This document shows, piece by piece, positions 8,921 through 58,036 of a stretch of DNA of 60,983 nt. Source of the DNA: Clostridium sp. AM58-1XD (lineage in GTDB: Bacteria; Bacillota; Clostridia; Lachnospirales; Lachnospiraceae); the NCBI RefSeq assembly GCF_003464085.1, contig NZ_QSDR01000028.1:1-60983 (forward strand), in the 5' to 3' direction. The notes beneath the pieces are model-generated. The model was not told the DNA's origin and ran no database searches. It saw nothing but the letters and a program-made list of their open reading frames with translations. Position numbers and translations under genes: made by a program. Each line of letters begins with the position of its first letter. Within the stretch, counting starts at the first letter, position 1.

Positions 8921-8977
8921 CCGAAACACCACCCTTCTTTTTATATATTCCATCTGCTAATATACCGGATCCACAGA

Positions 8978-9201
8978 GCGGATACGGCGCCTCCGGCTGA
9001 TCTAAGCGCACGGATTTCTGCGGTATACGCAGAAACCGGTATGCGCAGATATAATGTCCCCTTTGTGGACATTATACCGTATCCGCTTTGCGGATACGAC
9101 GCCTCTGGCTGATTTCAACGCCCGGATTTCTGCGGTATACGCAGAAACCGGTATGCGCAGATATAATGTCCCCTTTGTGGACATTATATCATATATAAGA
9201 C
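8978..9201. repeat. Family A repeat, locus 1: two tandem 112-bp units
   Basis: Units 8978-9089 and 9090-9201 are nearly identical. Each contains a TTTCTGCG-GTATA-CGCAGAAA hairpin and a TATAATGTCC / GGACATTATA hairpin, and a third hairpin (CGTATCCGC-TTT-GCGGATACG, 9078-9098) lies across the junction. The same architecture recurs at 57762-57940. It occupies the 5' side of the lipoprotein gene (start 8920). There is no coding potential of note. With the family B element and a terminator it fills the 8921-9478 gap. Confidence 0.85.
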
Positions 9202-9243
9202 AGCCGCCGCAATCAAACAAGGATCATAATCATGTAAGACGAC

Positions 9244-9359
9244 GGTGGTTGCAAAAAGGAATAAAGCATTGCCACTGATACCAGATGTAGTGACTTGGCC
9301 ACTGCCCGGAACGGAATCTGGTATCAGTGACACAGCTGATTCGACTTTTTGCAACCACC
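9244..9359 (+). repeat. Family B structured repeat, copy 1
   Basis: Outer arms GGTGGTTGCAAAAAG (9244-9258) and CTTTTTGCAACCACC (9345-9359) pair perfectly. Inner arms CACTGATACCAGA (9273-9285) and TCTGGTATCAGTG (9317-9329) also pair perfectly. They enclose a core containing AGTGACTTGGCCACTGC and GGAACGGAA. This core recurs at 26153, 28258 and 44531 while the stem sequence differs. Confidence 0.85.
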
Positions 9360-9373
9360 CTCTTCTTCACACG

Positions 9374-9420
9374 AAAAAGGGAAGTTCTAAGGCCTTTCAG
9401 CGCTCAGTACTTCCCTTTTC
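9374..9420 (-). terminator. Terminator of the thiamine-precursor operon
   Basis: AAAAAGGGAAGT (9374-9385) and ACTTCCCTTTT (9409-9419) form a hairpin; on the minus strand it is followed by TTTTT. It lies 59 bp beyond the stop of the TatD-type gene, the last gene of the riboswitch operon. Confidence 0.75.
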
Positions 9421-9478
9421 AAGCAGGAACGGACCCGGAATTAATTCCGGTATTCCTGCCACCCTATTCTATCTTTTT

Positions 9479-10225
9479 TCATATTCTTTCATATTCAGCT
9501 TTTATGAATTCCGTAAAATTCTTCTCCAGCTGTTTTTTTACCGTTTCCACATCCACGTGTTTTATCATGGCGATCAATGATGTGGACTGAAGCAGAATAT
9601 CACTCATGGATTCCATAGGAACCTCTCCCAGCGCCCAGCATACGGCCGGCCAGCCGTCCGTTTCGATTAGAAGTTTGGACAGCGGCACATCCCTGATCAC
9701 CCGTTTCACAGCTTCACATTTTTCACCATCCGGACCCACGGTAAAATAACATCCGAGAGCCAGAAACGTTTCAAATCCCTCTCCTTTTTCGTCGGAATAC
9801 CAGTGAACGAGATATCGTCCGGGATACTCTTTAATTATATCTGCGGTCCTCTGCTCCTGGCCCTTTGTATGAAGAATCACAGGCTTATTTTCACGGCAGG
9901 CCAGTTCCAGCTGGCGGCGGAATACCTCTTCCTGAATCGTCAGGGAATTTTCACACCAGACGCTGTCCATTCCAATTTCCCCGATAATATCTGCATGATC
10001 CAGATACGGCTTCATGTCCTCAAATCTGATTTTTCCGGCATTCCACGGATGAAGTCCGAAGGAGCCATACGCCTGTTGTTTCCCGTCTTCCGCCATAACC
10101 GTTTTCAGCAGCTTTGCTTCTTTTGGGTCTGACGCACAGTATATCGTACGGATTCCCTGCTCTTTTCTGATCCGTCTCTCTTCTTCCGTCCCAAGATGGG
10201 CATGGGCATCAAAGATTCGTTCCAT
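9479..10225 (-). CDS. TatD-family metal-dependent hydrolase, last gene of the TPP-riboswitch operon
   Basis: 248 aa with all the metal-site motifs of the TatD/amidohydrolase fold: DAHAHLG near the N-terminus (HxH), GLHPW (~58), EIGMD (~80), ILHTKG (~116), LVHWYSDE (~139) and IETDGW (~188). Known TatD proteins are divalent-metal nucleases or hydrolases. The gene overlaps the 3' end of the upstream ATPase gene by 17 bp and has a GGGAAGG ribosome binding site, so it is co-transcribed with a thiamine-precursor transporter. This makes a hydrolytic step on an imported precursor possible, but that is inference; a general deoxyribonuclease role remains the alternative. Confidence 0.85.
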   Translation of the reverse strand: MERIFDAHAHLGTEEERRIRKEQGIRTIYCASDPKEAKLLKTVMAEDGKQQAYGSFGLHPWNAGKIRFEDMKPYLDHADIIGEIGMDSVWCENSLTIQEEVFRRQLELACRENKPVILHTKGQEQRTADIIKEYPGRYLVHWYSDEKGEGFETFLALGCYFTVGPDGEKCEAVKRVIRDVPLSKLLIETDGWPAVCWALGEVPMESMSDILLQSTSLIAMIKHVDVETVKKQLEKNFTEFIKAEYERI

Positions 10226-10970
10226 CGCCTTCCCTTTCCGAGGATGTCCTCATGATTTCATCATAGATCGTCTGTCTCAGCTCCCCCTGGCTGTAGAGCC
10301 ATCTCCTGTCTCTCCTGCCTTCCGGAACATTCAGCTCGGCGCATACTCCTGCAGGATTTCCTCCCAGAATGAGGATTCGGTCAGACAAATAAATCGCTTC
10401 GTCCATATCATGAGTGACGAGAAGCACCGTTTTATTCATCTTTTCCCTCATAGACAGAAGCCAGTCCTGCATTTCCCCTCTCGTAATGACATCCAGGGCT
10501 CCGAATGGTTCGTCCAGCAGCAGAATATCTGCCTTGCAGAGAGCCGTCCTTAAAAATGCCGCTCTCTGGCGCATCCCTCCCGAGAGCGCGGACGGATAAG
10601 AATGCTCATAGCCGGAAAGGCCGAAGGTATCCATAGCCTTTAAGGCCTCTTTTCTCATCTCGCCCGTCGTGTTATGAATTCTTCCATAAAGACATACATT
10701 ATCCAGAATGTTCTTCCACGGAAACAGCAGATCATTCTGAGGCATGTAGGCAAAACGGCCGGAGACCCCCTGGATTTTTTTGCCATCCACACAGATATCC
10801 CCCCTGTCCGGTTTTAAAACACCGGTCAGAAGTTTCAGGACCGTCGATTTACCGCCGCCTGAAGTTCCCAGAATACTGACAAATTCTCCTTCTTTGATGC
10901 TGAAATCCAGATGATCCAGCACGTTCTTATCTTCATAGGAAAAACTCAGGTCTGATACGCTCAGTTTCAT
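10209..10970 (-). CDS. thiZ: ABC transporter ATP-binding protein (ThiZ-like, thiamine precursor uptake)
   Basis: 253 aa from MKLSVSDLSF (AGAGGA ribosome binding site). Walker A GTSGGGKST (~35), signature LSGGMRQR (~130), Walker B ILLLDEPFGALD (~150) and switch THD. The ALSGGMRQRAAFLRT signature and FGALDVITR are typical of the nitrate/taurine/HMP-type importer ATPases. It energises the permease encoded upstream at the cytoplasmic face. The assignment to thiamine precursors rests on the riboswitch and the binding protein in the same operon. Confidence 0.85.
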   Translation of the reverse strand: MKLSVSDLSFSYEDKNVLDHLDFSIKEGEFVSILGTSGGGKSTVLKLLTGVLKPDRGDICVDGKKIQGVSGRFAYMPQNDLLFPWKNILDNVCLYGRIHNTTGEMRKEALKAMDTFGLSGYEHSYPSALSGGMRQRAAFLRTALCKADILLLDEPFGALDVITRGEMQDWLLSMREKMNKTVLLVTHDMDEAIYLSDRILILGGNPAGVCAELNVPEGRRDRRWLYSQGELRQTIYDEIMRTSSEREGDGTNL

Positions 10971-10989
10971 ATCAATCCTCTCCTTCTGA

Positions 10990-12036
10990 TCACTGCGGCA
11001 GAAATTCGTTCGTGTAACACTCATAAGCCGGTATTTTCCGGTCAATTACACCGTACTCTTTCAGAAAATCCGTATAGCTGTCCCAAACGCTGTCCTTCAT
11101 GGTCCCCCATGTTTCACTGTCCTCCATATATTTTCCAGCCAGATATTCCTGGGACATCTGAAGCATTTCTATGGAGTAATCAGGCGCGTATTTTTGGAGA
11201 ATTTCCGCACTTTCATCTGGATTTTCAACTGCGTAACGATATCCGGCTTCCGTAGCCTTCAAAAATTTTCTGACCATGTCCGGCTTTTCATCCAGCACCC
11301 TGCTGCCTGCTATAATCACCGGCGTATAATAATCCAGGCGGTCGTCCAGCTGGCGCAGTTCCATATAGCGGATAGGAAAGCCTTTCATTTTACATTTGAT
11401 ATTGTCCCATCCCTCATAGAACCACATAATATCAGCCTTATCCTTCAGAGCGGCAAACCCGGAACCGTCAGAAATCACCATGCTAAGCTTGGAAAAATCG
11501 GCGCCTTCTTTTGCCATCACTGCTTTCAGAACCGCCTCTTCTCCCGGGCCGCCCCAGCCGGCATACGTCTTTCCTTCAAAATCCGCAGGAGAATGGATAT
11601 CGCTCTCCTCATAAACTGCAAAGCCGGATGTATTATGCTGTATTACGGCAGCGACCGCCTTGATCGGAAGCGGGTCCTTTGAAGCCAGTGCTACGGTCAC
11701 ATCTTCCTGATAGCTGATCCCGAAATCGCCCTTACCTACGGACACAAGTGTTGCCGTAGCTCCTTCTGTCGGTTCCACAATACTCACATCCAGGCCGGCT
11801 TCTTCATAATATCCTTTATCCTTAGCCACATACAGCCCTGTGTGGTTTGTATTAGCTACGTAGTCCAGGATAACCGTTACCTGTTCCAGCTTTGCAGACG
11901 CCTCTTCTTTTTTATCCGCCCTCTGGTTCTCTTCCGTTTTTTCTGAAATCCCTGCGTCATTTCCATTTCCTTTGCAGCCTGTCACCGATAGCGCTGCTGC
12001 TGCTAACAAAATCGCCGCCATTGTCCTTTTTTTCAT
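10990..12036 (-). CDS. thiY: Substrate-binding lipoprotein of NMT1/THI5-like family (ThiY-like)
   Basis: 348 aa. Signal peptide with lipobox SVTGC (Cys21). The mature protein has the NMT1/THI5-like fold start (VTVILDYVANTNHTGLYVAKDKGYY), the GKGDFGISYQEDV pocket segment and a W-x-x-Y region. Members of this family capture N-formyl-4-amino-5-aminomethyl-2-methylpyrimidine or related pyrimidine precursors of thiamine. The start overlaps the permease stop (ATGA) and the ATPase gene follows after 19 bp, so the three form one importer. Confidence 0.85.
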   Translation of the reverse strand: MKKRTMAAILLAAAALSVTGCKGNGNDAGISEKTEENQRADKKEEASAKLEQVTVILDYVANTNHTGLYVAKDKGYYEEAGLDVSIVEPTEGATATLVSVGKGDFGISYQEDVTVALASKDPLPIKAVAAVIQHNTSGFAVYEESDIHSPADFEGKTYAGWGGPGEEAVLKAVMAKEGADFSKLSMVISDGSGFAALKDKADIMWFYEGWDNIKCKMKGFPIRYMELRQLDDRLDYYTPVIIAGSRVLDEKPDMVRKFLKATEAGYRYAVENPDESAEILQKYAPDYSIEMLQMSQEYLAGKYMEDSETWGTMKDSVWDSYTDFLKEYGVIDRKIPAYECYTNEFLPQ

Positions 12037-12984: not shown

Positions 12985-12989
12985 TGATT

Positions 12990-13078
12990 CATTCCGTATC
13001 TTCCCTTCGTTGGCATTATCCAAATCAGGTTAAGGGTCGAAAATTCCTTTCCTCTCAGCCGTTAAAGCTCCCCTAGTC
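12990..13078 (-). promoter_or_regulatory. TPP (THI-box) riboswitch
   Basis: Read on the minus strand, the aptamer has the conserved elements CTAGGGGAGC, GGCTGAGAGGAAAGG, CGACCCTTAACCTGAT and GGATAATGCCAACGAAGGGA. These match the known THI-box consensus closely. It controls the downstream importer/TatD operon, which is therefore expected to be shut off when thiamine pyrophosphate is plentiful. Confidence 0.96.
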
Positions 13079-13255
13079 TCATTTTTCACTTTAAGTTTTG
13101 ATTTTATCACAAGCATCACGATTTGTAAAGGAGGCAGTTTATTTTTGCCTTCTCCACCTCTATTTTCAAAAATATGGAAGTATAATCCTGCCATTTTCCG
13201 TAAATCATTTTCTTAAACACTCATGTTAACAATTTGAGATGCGGAGGTAAGAATC

Positions 13256-26110: not shown

Positions 26111-26225
26111 GAGGTTGCAAAAATTATATCAGCACTGCCGCCAATATAAGATGGAGTGACCTGGCCACTGCATGGAACGGAATCTTATATTGGCGGCAAT
26201 GCTTTATTCTCTTGCAGCATCCTCT
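26111..26225 (+). repeat. Family B structured repeat, copy 2 (core inverted relative to flanks)
   Basis: Perfect 17-bp inner arms (26136-26152 and 26182-26198) surround the core GGAGTGACCTGGCCACTGC...GGAACGGAA. The outer flank GAATAAAGCATTGCC, on the left of the core in copies 1 and 4, is on its right here (as its complement, about 26196-26211). It lies directly upstream of the efflux operon; a TATAAT in the minus strand (26128-26123) could serve as that operon's -10. Confidence 0.85.
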
Positions 26226-26320
26226 ATTACTCAATCATTTTCTTCTTCCATGATAAAATACAGTACGAAGATGAACTGAAAATAAACAAACCGCTTTTTA
26301 GCCCGTCCAAAACATGAACA

Positions 26321-28235: not shown

Positions 28236-28243
28236 GCGCCCAA

Positions 28244-28302
28244 GCCCATAGACCAGACTCCGTTCCAGGCAGTGGCCAAGTCACTCCATCTGGTCCATGG
28301 GG
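28244..28302 (-). repeat. Family B structured repeat, copy 3 (minimal)
   Basis: CCCATAGACCAGA (28245-28257) and TCTGGTCCATGGG (28289-28301) pair with one mismatch around the core, which reads GGAGTGACTTGGCCACTGCC...GGAACGGA on the minus strand. The long outer flanks of copies 1, 2 and 4 are missing. Confidence 0.8.
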
Positions 28303-28338
28303 CGTCTCGGGTTTTGTTTTTCAGGACTTTCCGAACAC

Positions 28339-44485: not shown

Positions 44486-44606
44486 GAGGGTGTTGCAAAA
44501 GTCGAATCCGCATTGCCTCCGATACCAGATTCCGTTCCAGGCAGTGGCCCAATGTCACTACATCTGGTATCGGAGGCGATGCTCTATTCCTTTTTACAAC
44601 ATCCTC
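44486..44606 (-). repeat. Family B structured repeat, copy 4
   Basis: ATTGCCTCCGATACCAGAT (44512-44530) and ATCTGGTATCGGAGGCGAT (44562-44580) pair with one mismatch; outer GAGGGTGTTGCAAAA (44486-) and TTTTTACAACATCCTC (-44606) pair partly. On the minus strand the core reads TGTAGTGACATTGGGCCACTGCC...GGAACGGAA. It is the main content of the 44292-44768 gap; the remainder shows nothing recognisable. Confidence 0.85.
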
Positions 44607-44768
44607 TGAATTAATAATGTGTTCATTGATCACAGTCAGCCCTTGCAGTCCCTGTGCTCCCGCCGACCCTGTTCCTTCCTGCGGAATTACAAAGTCAAGC
44701 TTATACTGTACATATATGAGTCAGAGAGATCATTGGTAAGCACTCCGTTTATCAACACGTTAGTTTCG

Positions 44769-47700
44769 TCATAGTGGTTCCTCCTTCTGCAAGGCCCCTC
44801 TTGTCCCATCCGATTCCGGATTAAAATAATACTGTTTCCTGTCAATTTCCTTCCAGCCAACCGCCATCGCTCCGTCAGCACCCAGATAAAACCAACTCTG
44901 ATATGCCGGGTCATAGTGCCATCCCGTCGCCATTGCTCCTTCTTTTAAGCCGGCCTTTGTCTTCGTATCCTCCTCCGTGCACAGATAATACCACTGGTTA
45001 TTGATAAACTGCCAGCCGGTCAACATCCGGCCCTCTCCGTCGAAATAGTACCACAGATTGTCAACGATCCCCCAGCGGCCCGCCGCGTAAACGCCGTTTG
45101 TCTGGCGGAATTTCCAGATACCGGTTTCCGTCCGTTCCCAGGCGCCCCGAAGAATGTCGGTATTTTCCGCCGCACCGCCTTCGGAGGAACTCCGATTCCA
45201 TAAATATACAATGCGGAAGCCGGCGAGATTGCCCACTACCTTGCCATACCTCCCAACCAGTATGACGCCCGAGCCGGAGATATGGCCGTTGATTATCAGT
45301 GTGCCTTCCACAACTATCGTACCATCCACAACAAGATTTCCGTCCACGGTCAGCACAATCCCGTCTGGAACCGTGATCTCCGCCTCCTCGCCAATCCATT
45401 TATCACCGGTGACAGACGTATCCTGCTTTACAGAAGCGAGGGCCCCGTCCGGGACATCCTCTTTCCCATCCCAGGAGGCATCGGCGATGGCATCCTGGTT
45501 CAGATAGGTGTTGAGCAGCAGCTGAACCCTGGGAGAATCGGTGGAAAGCGGCAGCGATTCCGGAAACGCCTGAAAGCCCAGTTTTTGAAGATTCGGGCCA
45601 ATGTGAACCGAGTCAATGCCATCGCAGCCATCAAACGCCAACGTACCAATTTCAGTAACCGATTCCGGAAGGCTAAGAACTCCGGTAAAGTTAACACAAT
45701 CCTTAAATGAAATTTGATCAATGGTTTCTAATCCGGCCGGGAGTTCCAAATTTCCTGTAAACCCACATCCGTTAAACGCGCTTATCTCAATGGAGGTTAA
45801 CGTATCAGGAAGAGACAAGGCTCCGGTAAAGCCCGCACGCTGAAACGTACTTTCTAAAATATTGCTCAATCTCCCTTTGATAATTAAATTACCGGTAAAG
45901 CCCGTATTCCGAAAAGCAGCTCTTCCTATATAGGACACGTTTTCAGGAATCGTTAAATCGCCGGTAAAGCCAGAATGACTAAACGTGTCGAGGCCAATAT
46001 AGGTCAATGTCTCCGGAAGGCGGAGCTGCCCTGAAAACTCATTATAGATAAAAGCAGATTTTTCGATGCAGGTAAGCGTCTCCGGAAGGCGGAGCGAACC
46101 AGTAATATGTTGGTTGAAGAAAGCCTTTTCACCAATATGGGTCACAGAATACATGTTTCCGTCCGGAGCCTTGACTGTATCCGGAATGAACACATCCTTA
46201 TCAGGGTCTCCGCTGTATTTGATTAGCTTTACCGCATCACTTCCGATCCTTATATATCTCATATTCCCATCTTGAAACCCTGTATCCGCTGACGGCTGAA
46301 ATGGCTGGCCTTCCACCCTAATCTTCTCCTTAAGGATGCCGGAATCAAAAAGCAAGTCGCCCACCTCCTGTTTCCCGGTATCATAACCCTCAATATCGGT
46401 TCCATTAAACGCCCGTTCTCCGATTCTAGTCACTCCGTCCGGGATTCGTAGCCGGCCTGTCAATTTGCTGCAGTTAAAAAACGCCCCCATTTCAATCGAG
46501 GTTATTCCATCCGGCAAAACCAGTTTGCCTGTGAAATCGCAATTTTCAAAAGCCATATCACCAATATCGGTAATTGAATCCGGAAGTTTCAACTCGCCTG
46601 TAAATTTACACATAGAAAACGTCTCACGCTCTATTACCTTCAGTTCTTTAGGCAGAGTAAGTCTCCCTTCAAATCCAATGTTACAGAACGCCCACTGGCC
46701 AATGTACGTCACTGAATCCGGAATGAACAGATCTCCGGTAAATGTACAGTCTCTGAACGCTGAATTTCCAATAAAGGTCAACTCCTCCGGTAAAATCAGC
46801 CGGCCGGTAAATCCGGTTGACTGAAACGCGCCTCCCCCTATGTAAGTCAGCGTATCCGGCAAGTGAAGCTCGCCTGTAAAGCCGCTTTCGTAAAATACGG
46901 AGTCTTCGATTCGTACCAGTGAATCCGAAAGGATCAGTTCACCCATAAAGTTACATCTCTCAAATGCCGCCTTCCCGATTTCAGTCACCGTATCGGGAAT
47001 AACCAGATCTCCCGTCAGTCCGGTACAGTCCCTGAACGCTCCATTCACAATACGGACCACCTTGTACTCCTGGCCGTTTGCAGGCTTTACCACCTTATCC
47101 GGGATAATGAGCGACCCCTTCGGCTTTTCACCGTCATACCCCATAAGCTGCACCGTGTCAGGCCCCAGCTCCTTATAACTCAATCCGTCCGCGGCAAAAT
47201 GGTCGTTGATGGTATATACCTCGGCTCCTCCCAATATCACACTCACTGATATGGCTGGGTCGCATACATATCCCTCTGGCAGCTTGGCAGTAAACTCAAA
47301 TTCGCCGGTATACGGCCACCGCCCCTCCTCGTCCTGCTCATATTCCGGACAGCTCCAATCGGCGATGGAAAGCTCCACAGCCTCTGTTTCATCCGCGATG
47401 AACGCATCAACCTGCGTGGGCAGCATGGAAACCACCGTTTCAAAATCTGCCTGATTTTCCTGATTAACGCCAATCAGGGACAGTTGGCCCCCGTTCAGAT
47501 TATCACCATCCACGAACTCCCATCGAAAGACTGTCTTTTCCGAGCTCTCTTCCACCAGCTTTTCGTCCTGTGAAGGGATCTCGCCTTCCTCCAGCTCCTC
47601 GTCCTGTGAAGGGGTCTCGCCTTCCTCCAGTTCTTCGCCCTGTGAAGGGGTCTTACCTTCCTCCAACTCCTCGCCCTGCCCAGTTAGCGTGTCGTCCAGC

Positions 47701-57732: not shown

Positions 57733-57761
57733 CGCTTCCTCCATACTGGGATATCATAGGC

Positions 57762-57940
57762 TTTCTGCGGCTCGCGCAGAAACCGTTTTATGCGCAGGTA
57801 TAATGTCTGCTTCGCATACATTATACCATATCCGTTACACGGCTATGGGGCCTCCGGCGGATTTGAGCGCACGGCTTTTGGCGGTATACGCCAAAACCGA
57901 TAATGCGCAGGTATAATGTCTGCTTCGCATACATTATACC
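57762..57940. repeat. Family A repeat, locus 2: two tandem 113-bp units
   Basis: Unit hairpins TTTCTGCG-GCTCG-CGCAGAAA (57762-57782) and TTTTGGCG-GTATA-CGCCAAAA (57876-57896), each followed by TATAATGT...ACATTATA hairpins (57799- and 57912-). Compared with locus 1, paired positions in the first hairpin change together. It lies in the divergent helicase-pyrophosphatase gap (57745-58163). Confidence 0.85.
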
Positions 57941-58036
57941 ATGTTATTGTTATTTTGTCTGGATGGGGGTTTTTATTGTCTTGTTTGGTAAATATTAGAA
58001 AACTATGCGGCAGAAGCAAAATAATTTTTCGATAAC

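What the first reader, a model, noticed from the sequence alone, without database searches (positions are those of the whole stretch)
9244..9359. Family B element: long variable stem capped by a nearly invariant ~30-nt core, four copies
At 9244, 26111, 28244 and 44486 a palindromic stem (13-19 bp, sequence different at each locus but self-complementary) surrounds a core that reads (T/G)(G/T)AGTGAC, YTGG, CCACTGC, GGAACGGA with only a few changes. Preserving pairing while changing sequence, and conserving the loop, is the pattern of a selected structure. All copies lie between genes. It could be a non-coding RNA, a REP/MITE mobilised by a transposase acting elsewhere, or a recombination site. 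I do not recognise it as a described family.
Basis: seen in the sequence. Interest (0 to 1): 0.75.

Follow-up and report, generated by a model that had tools for sequence, protein, structure and literature searches.

The report
Mobile palindromic DNA repeat, four copies
Four copies of a long DNA hairpin with a constant tip lie between genes of an uncultured Lachnospiraceae bacterium; they look like small passive mobile elements whose two arms are kept matched, so they are a new family of a known kind rather than a new class of RNA.

Summary
In detail: four intergenic hairpins (9245-9362 +, 26111-26226 +, 28240-28307 -, 44486-44607 -) share a 29-31 nt cap (24 of 29 ungapped columns invariant) on stems that differ yet stay paired (6 pairs changed on both sides). 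No Rfam match, no fifth copy in the window, no convincing copy elsewhere: an 84,980-species scan, viral contigs, phages, plasmids, 397 Lachnospiraceae genomes. Syntenic relative G402 lacks copies 2 and 3. The arms of copies 1, 2 and 4 end in GAGGRTGTTGCAAAA-like repeats. The same ends bracket unrelated 36-109 bp palindromes in other Lachnospiraceae and resemble the published IS6/IS26 end consensus (10 of 12 informative positions for copy 4's best end; 12 of 12 in some relatives' ends). I read it as a MITE-like non-autonomous mobile palindrome with a private cap. Matched stem changes need not mean RNA selection: DNA template switching also explains an insertion mirrored in both arms of copy 1 and the cap lying flipped in copy 2; a sister genome's repeats show like signatures. 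Against: no target duplication, no transposase seen, copy 3 lacks the ends, host genome not held. Interest moderate.

The parts
9245..9362 (+). Copy 1 (c1): foldback element; arms 9245-9286 and 9316-9362, cap 9287-9315 (29 nt)
   Evidence: both arms carry the same extra G (GTGGTTGC) compared with copy 4 (arms printed)
26111..26226 (+). Copy 2 (c2): arms 26111-26152 and 26182-26226, cap 26153-26181 (29 nt), between divergent HlyD-type adaptor and response-regulator genes
   Evidence: outer arms align better flipped relative to the cap; absent at the orthologous gap of G402
28240..28307 (-). Copy 3 (c3): short form, cap 28259-28287, arms about 19 nt each, no GAGGRTGTTGCAAAA ends; starts 5 nt after the histidine-kinase stop
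   Evidence: absent at the orthologous site of G402
44486..44607 (-). Copy 4 (c4): arms 44486-44530 and 44562-44607, cap 44531-44561 (31 nt)
44486..44500 (+). Terminal inverted repeat of copy 4, GAGGGTGTTGCAAAA, exact
   Evidence: same 15-mer bounds palindromes in G058, G108, G260 and G247
44592..44606 (-). Opposite terminal repeat of copy 4, GAGGATGTTGTAAAA (2 mismatches to GAGGGTGTTGCAAAA)

Best explanation
Family B is a non-autonomous, MITE-like mobile palindrome. SHOWN: dispersed intergenic copies on both strands; related ends in copies 1, 2 and 4; a near-constant cap; matched but differing inner stems; absence at two orthologous sites of a syntenic relative. INFERRED: copies spread when a transposase supplied elsewhere acts on the outer ends, most likely one of the IS6/IS26 type, because the ends resemble that family's published consensus. 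INFERRED: the arms stay complementary mainly through DNA template switching. During replication the long hairpin folds, one arm is used as template for the other, and sometimes the cap is inverted. The cap is kept either by descent or because the transposition machinery or the hairpin tip needs it.
For: Cap and pairing. Absence in G402, which keeps the efflux/RR/HK/aminotransferase gene order. No cap match at up to 3 mismatches in the 9 genomes of the genus nearest by PurL, G402 included, nor convincing ones in 397 Lachnospiraceae genomes, so the family looks lineage-restricted. Ends: GAGGRTGTTGCAAAA has 46 places in 34 of 397 genomes against 3 places for the reversed control; of the 30 places that came with a locus, 10 have an inverted partner (up to 4 mismatches) within 115 bp, 7 of them clear palindromes by eye; of 13 regions fetched next, some chosen because pairs were visible, 9 have an inverted partner 36-109 bp away; G260 joins a GAGGGTGTTGCAAAA end to a GGGGCTGTTGCAAAA end; the IS6 consensus is matched at 10 of 12 (copy 4's better end) to 12 of 12 positions (G260, a viral contig). 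Template switching: 8 of the 14 inner pairs vary, with 54 Watson-Crick, 2 G-U and 0 other cells of 56; between copies 1 and 4 both inner-stem differences are mirrored while by my hand count only 1 of 11 outer-arm differences is, that one an insertion (arms printed); copy 2's outer arms align better flipped (72 v 57 against copy 1, 78 v 69 against copy 4), while copies 1 and 4 agree unflipped (89 v 66). In G402, 155-bp repeats have interchangeable paired stems, a copy with one arm switched, three copies with the 3' flank replaced by the inverted 5' flank, and hairpin loops in both orientations (ATTCT 14, AGAAT 4, other 17 of 35). Arm homogenisation and spacer inversion are the published signatures (PMC8604942, passages; PMC8794818, abstract and opening).
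Against: No target duplication was seen by eye at copies 1, 2, 4 or the G058 elements (IS6 makes 8 bp). No transposase was seen: none among 30 window ORFs scanned with Pfam, and the host genome is not held. Copy 3 lacks the ends. In the window alone the end motif is not above chance. GAGGATGTTGCAAAA is also an open coding word and many of the 46 places have no inverted partner, so the hit count overstates the repeat. The scored end of copy 2 matches the IS6 consensus at only 8 of 12 and the ends of copy 1, which carry an insertion, were not scored. The cap varies less than the stem (5 of 29 columns v 8 of 14 pairs, Fisher p 0.013), which hints at selection on the cap. Three G-U pairs in copy 3 would also fit RNA pairing. 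The G402 evidence concerns another repeat family, and there 19 of 35 third hairpins are not identical over the first 10 arm bases (12 of these by one T-G pair). A second relative, G060, showed no hairpin family of this sort in 399 kb. The c2 gap in G402 is not a clean empty site. The flip rests on one copy.
Confidence: 0.62

Rival explanations
1. A functional RNA: the hairpin is transcribed, the cap with its purine-rich internal loops binds a protein or RNA, and the stem co-varies under selection for pairing.
For: Covariation exceeds nearly every shuffle; cap less variable than stem; conserved GUGAC/GGAAC opposed segments could form tandem G-A pairs (sequence; folds); G-U pairs in copy 3.
Against: No Rfam match; no fixed orientation or place relative to genes (one divergent, one convergent, two co-directional gaps); copies 2 and 3 missing from a syntenic relative; a mirrored insertion and a flipped cap are not expected; two apical folds of similar energy in some copies; a like stem habit in unrelated repeats.
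Confidence: 0.15
2. A REP-like element moved as single-stranded hairpin by a Y1 (RAYT/IS200-type) transposase that reads the cap.
For: Long imperfect hairpin with conserved tip, intergenic, 4 in 61 kb.
Against: REP stems are mostly 6-9 bp with a GTAG or CGTC tag at one end (PMC3733652 abstract and passages), not met here; Y1 transposases matched in only 2 of 5 related genomes and not in G402, which is rich in hairpin repeats.
Confidence: 0.1
3. Mainly transcription terminators: terminator hairpins that share a loop by descent or because the loop helps termination.
For: Short members with the same ends in other genomes are followed by T runs (L148, L159); copy 4 is followed by CTCTTTTCC.
Against: Copies 1 and 2 have no T run; copy 2 lies between divergent genes; copies 1 and 3 sit beside separate terminator-like hairpins (I12, I3).
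Confidence: 0.1

Closest known systems
Bacterial MITEs, in particular those with IS6/IS26-type ends
   Same: Short, intergenic, terminal inverted repeats; ends match the published consensus GGTTCTGTTGCAAA (positions 3-4 most variable, left out) at 10 of 12 positions in copy 4's better end and 12 of 12 in one end of relatives' elements. Two IS6-family MITEs (227 and 336 bp) are mentioned in PMC7986276 (passages).
   Different: No 8-bp target duplication seen; second base A not G; one long foldback with a private cap; cognate transposase unseen.
REP / GTAG palindromes (RAYT-associated)
   Same: Intergenic hairpins; sub-families with alternative complementary stem residues are described there too (PMC3733652, passages).
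   Different: Stems longer, cap 29-31 nt, no GTAG/CGTC foot, no associated Y1 gene seen.
Quasipalindromes kept perfect by template switching
   Same: Arm homogenisation and spacer inversion (PMC8604942, passages); creation and repair of stems (PMC8794818, abstract).
   Different: There shown for single sites in yeast genes and for RNA genes; here across copies of a dispersed repeat, and inferred.
155-bp GTAACAGTTCAG repeats of sister genome G402
   Same: Multi-hairpin repeat, conserved cap, swapped paired stems, loops in both orientations, deletion derivatives.
   Different: Different ends, cap and size; no sequence homology seen.

Membership tests
MITE | Short element without transposase gene, in several dispersed intergenic copies | tested here: met
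   Four copies of 68-122 bp between genes; the mechanical frame across copy 1 was not tested
MITE | Terminal inverted repeats shared by copies | tested here: inconclusive
   Present in copies 1, 2 and 4 with changes; absent in copy 3; motif alone not above chance in the window
MITE | Target site duplication | tested here: not met
   None seen by eye at flanks of copies 1, 2, 4
MITE | Absent at orthologous sites in relatives | tested here: met
   Copies 2 and 3 absent in G402, site of copy 2 not clean; copies 1 and 4 not tested
IS6/IS26 ends | Terminal consensus GGnnCTGTTGCAAA | tested here: inconclusive
   10 and 9 of 12 for the two ends of copy 4, 8 for one end of copy 2, others not scored; 10-12 of 12 in G058, G260, L198
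IS6/IS26 ends | 8-bp target duplication | tested here: not met
   None seen by eye
IS6/IS26 ends | Related transposase in the same genome | not testable with these tools
   No whole genome held for the window
REP/GTAG | GTAG or CGTC tetranucleotide at one end of a 20-40 bp palindrome | tested here: not met
   Feet are GAGGRTGTTG-like; GTAG occurs inside the cap of copies 1 and 4 only
REP/GTAG | RAYT (Y1) gene in the genome | not testable with these tools
   Host genome not held; relatives 2 of 5
Rfam structured RNA | Match to a curated covariance model | tested here: not met
   only a TPP riboswitch elsewhere in the window; (9000-9600, permissive): one sub-threshold match outside the element

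The most novel reading that the evidence does not exclude
A mobile hairpin class in Lachnospiraceae in which a fixed cap and fixed ends are combined with an exchangeable but nearly always paired stem, the cap acting as a turn-point for template switching (or as the recognised tip), so that each genome invents its own cap and stems.
Probability: 0.2. Interest if true: 0.65.

Novelty: new member of a known kind. Interest (0 to 1): 0.42.

Why it matters
Paired substitutions are usually taken as the best evidence for a functional RNA. This family, and unrelated repeats of a sister genome, suggest how DNA-level arm homogenisation of mobile palindromes can mimic that signal in intergenic regions, including an indel mirrored in both arms and an inverted cap. 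It also points to a group of Lachnospiraceae palindromes with IS6-like ends for which I found no name (literature searches), a useful test bed for how non-autonomous repeats keep their structure.

Tried and rejected
Chance cap: rejected. Insertion of a cap into ready-made unrelated hairpins: rejected for copies 1, 2 and 4 because the outer arms are related; still possible for copy 3. Exact cap pattern over genome contigs gave 14 stretches and over viral contigs 2; by eye none has a long stem round the cap. One, L006 in a Lachnospiraceae, differs by a single further base from the fuller cap pattern but has no stem, so I treat it as chance. A stricter viral scan gave 0. BLAST against plasmids and phages: none. 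Covariance model R1 over 397 Lachnospiraceae genomes: 0 (12 candidates scored in each genome listed, so a weak negative); over the 22 nearest: 3 rows at 2 places in 2 genomes, E 0.12-0.91, not followed. BLAST of copy 4 over 397 genomes: 10 weak matches, inspected, none with cap plus stem. Cap at up to 4 mismatches in all 280 loci held (3.0 Mb): only 15 of those 16 pattern-scan loci. TIR scans of viral contigs: 9 stretches without an inverted partner; 22 and 73 stretches, among which only L198 and L200 (a 99-bp palindrome in two orientations) showed an inverted pair, and no insertion sequence appeared. Inverted end pairs with a transposase gene: none among pairs up to 4 kb in 2.1 Mb of loci. 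Wider GTAACAGTTCAG pairs in G402 (15 over 300 bp) were not looked into. Mismatch test for RNA v DNA in G402 stems: G-T 5, A-C 3, purine-purine 10 against 502 Watson-Crick, too few to decide. TatD flanks of the 8 genomes were fetched as loci but not inspected beyond the cap search. Literature: the listings showed no paper on this element (two returned nothing; 8 of 10 searches used; subscription journals are mostly not held).

Full report
WHAT WAS CHECKED. The four loci were read. Each is a long hairpin whose tip reads G(T/G)AGTGAC-NN-GGCCACTGC-NN-GGAACGGA (copy 4 has two more bases). GGCCACTGCNNGGAACGGA occurs four times without mismatch; no shuffle of the window reaches four even at three mismatches. 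All four fold far below their shuffles. In the alignment A2, 24 of 29 ungapped cap columns are invariant, while 8 of the 14 stem pairs next to the cap vary. The variation keeps pairing: 6 pairs change on both sides (1 of 500 shuffles reach it), 10 cells change on both sides and the covariation score is 0.378 (0 of 500 each). Over the 16 pairs of columns 6-21, 59 of 64 cells are Watson-Crick, 3 are G-U (all copy 3) and 2 are mismatches. A model of the four finds no fifth copy in the window. The apical fold is not settled: an internal-loop form and an AGTG/CACT form lie close in energy in some copies.

ANATOMY. Copies 1, 2 and 4 are about 116-122 bp. From outside in they have GAGGRTGTTGCAAAA-like ends, a loosely paired stretch with two arm types (A...GGAATARAGC..., B...GTCGAATCMGC...), a near-perfect inner stem and the cap. 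Copy 3 has only a short stem and the cap, directly after a histidine-kinase stop codon. The gaps are one divergent (copy 2), one convergent (copy 3) and two co-directional (copies 1 and 4), with two copies on each strand. This is no pattern for a cis-regulator or a terminator, and terminator-like hairpins stand separately beside copies 1 and 3. Within the window the end motif by itself is not above chance (5 matches at up to 3 mismatches, 2.0 expected, 3 of 100 shuffles reach 5); its weight comes from its place in the arms and from other genomes.

RELATIVES. No whole genome is held for the window. The best relative found for its TatD protein is 59% identical, so the species is poorly sampled. 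Exact cap matches in one genome each of 84,980 species and in viral contigs lack a stem and look like chance; the closest, L006 in a Lachnospiraceae, differs by one base from the fuller pattern but is no hairpin. Plasmids and phages give none. Among 397 Lachnospiraceae genomes the model and BLAST give nothing convincing. The genus nearest by PurL (best 87% identity, G370) has 9 genomes, and none has the cap at up to three mismatches, nor have the 2 genomes of a second near genus. One of the nine, G402, has the best match to the window's response regulator among 30 relatives (84%) and keeps the same gene order across copies 2 and 3. Its adaptor/regulator gap lacks copy 2, though it is not a clean empty site, and its kinase and aminotransferase genes meet end to end without the 210 bp that hold copy 3 and a terminator. 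In G254 the same adaptor/regulator gap also lacks the cap and holds a different palindrome. Copies 1 and 4 were not tested this way.

THE ENDS. GAGGRTGTTGCAAAA occurs 46 times in 34 of 397 genomes against 3 for the reversed pattern. Many places look coding, but others bound palindromes: 10 of the 30 places that came with a locus have an inverted partner within 115 bp at up to 4 mismatches, 7 of them clear palindromes by eye. Of 13 regions fetched next, some chosen because pairs were visible, 9 have an inverted partner 36-109 bp away and 4 do not: five regions of G058 (four elements of 98-99 bp, one of 36 bp), two of G108, one each of G260 and G247. The interiors differ between genomes and none has the window's cap. 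G260 joins a GAGGGTGTTGCAAAA end to a GGGGCTGTTGCAAAA end, and a viral contig has a 99-bp palindrome with a GGGGCTGTTGCAAAA end. The published consensus of the shorter bacterial IS6/IS26 ends is GGTTCTGTTGCAAA with positions 3-4 most variable (PMC6807381, passages). Leaving out positions 3-4, GGGGCTGTTGCAAA agrees at 12 of 12, copy 4's better end at 10 of 12, its other end at 9, and one end of copy 2 at 8; the rest were not scored. Of 121,938 window 14-mers, 5 reach 10. IS6 elements make 8-bp target duplications (PMC7986276, passages); I saw none, so I call the ends IS6-like and do not file the element as an IS6 MITE.

WHY THE STEMS MATCH. Between copies 1 and 4 both inner-stem differences are mirrored. 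By hand count only 1 of 11 outer-arm differences is, and that one is an insertion (GTGTTGC to GTGGTTGC) present in both arms of copy 1 (arms printed). In copy 2 the A-type arm follows the cap instead of preceding it: outer arms score 72 flipped against 57 unflipped (copy 1) and 78 against 69 (copy 4), whereas copies 1 and 4 agree unflipped, 89 against 66. Homogenised arms and inverted spacers are what DNA template switching between inverted repeats does (PMC8604942, passages), and it can create and maintain RNA-like stems (PMC8794818, abstract and opening).

SUPPORT BY ANALOGY FROM G402. In 656 kb of G402 (41 loci) loop-sharing hairpins form clusters of 37, 3 and 2; G370 has one of 4 in 400 kb, and G060 none in 399 kb. 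The main G402 repeat is a 155-bp element with GTAACAGTTCAG ends and three hairpins. Its main stem is one of several unrelated paired sequences under a common cap (32 stems listed), though most copies share one stem. Three copies replace the 3' flank by the inverted 5' flank (L079 14196, L095 5849, L096 10649). Its third hairpin, 35 cases, has 16 with identical first 10 arm bases and 19 without (12 of these by one T-G pair; one case has an arm fully switched), and loops ATTCT 14, AGAAT 4, other 17. A second family (cap AAACTCGCTCC...GGAGCTCAGACAG) has 3 clustered members with different paired stems. The window's own other repeat (8961-9192 and 57760-57942) varies alike: TTTCTGCG-gtata-CGCAGAAA against TTTTGGCG-gtata-CGCCAAAA. 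Paired variation thus seems a habit of several palindromic repeats here and is weak evidence for an RNA function of any one of them.

VERDICT. A lineage-restricted, MITE-like palindrome with IS6-like ends and a private cap, at about 0.62 overall; the IS6-type transposase as mover is the least certain step. What remains unexplained is why the cap changes less than the stem: descent, a recognised tip, or an RNA role.

Noticed in passing
window 8961-9192 and 57760-57942: A second multi-hairpin intergenic repeat (tandem units of about 112 bp) whose small hairpins differ between sites by mirrored changes (TTTCTGCG/CGCAGAAA v TTTTGGCG/CGCCAAAA).
   Followed up: partly
L060-L099, L049 (genome G402): Abundant 155-bp multi-hairpin repeat with GTAACAGTTCAG ends, shorter forms down to a 30-bp perfect palindrome, interchangeable stems and loops in both orientations.
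   Followed up: partly
L050 about 10640-11060 (G254) and L049 about 10500-10560 (G402): The adaptor/regulator gap that holds copy 2 in the window holds a different palindrome with GTAACAGTTCAG-like ends in G254 and a GTTACTGTTCAGCCG stretch, perhaps a relic of one, in G402.
   Followed up: no
L064 11430, L068 11984, L091 12981 (G402): Hairpins with a common cap AAACTCGCTCC..GGAGCTCAGACAG on different paired stems.
   Followed up: partly
L121 11615 and 17889, L128 12277, L134 17374 (G370): Hairpin repeat with cap GATGCAAGCTTGCTTGCAAGA, similar to the cap of the G402 155-bp repeat.
   Followed up: no
L173-L177 (G058), L180 (G260), L181 (G247), L198 and L200 (viral contigs): Palindromes, mostly of 98-109 bp, with GAGGGTGTTGCAAAA or GGGGCTGTTGCAAAA ends.
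   Followed up: partly
window 12985-13084 (-): TPP riboswitch ahead of genes matching an NMT1/THI5-type ABC transporter.
   Followed up: no
window 47549-47656: Three tandem 36-nt repeats inside the large LRR/choline-binding protein gene.
   Followed up: no
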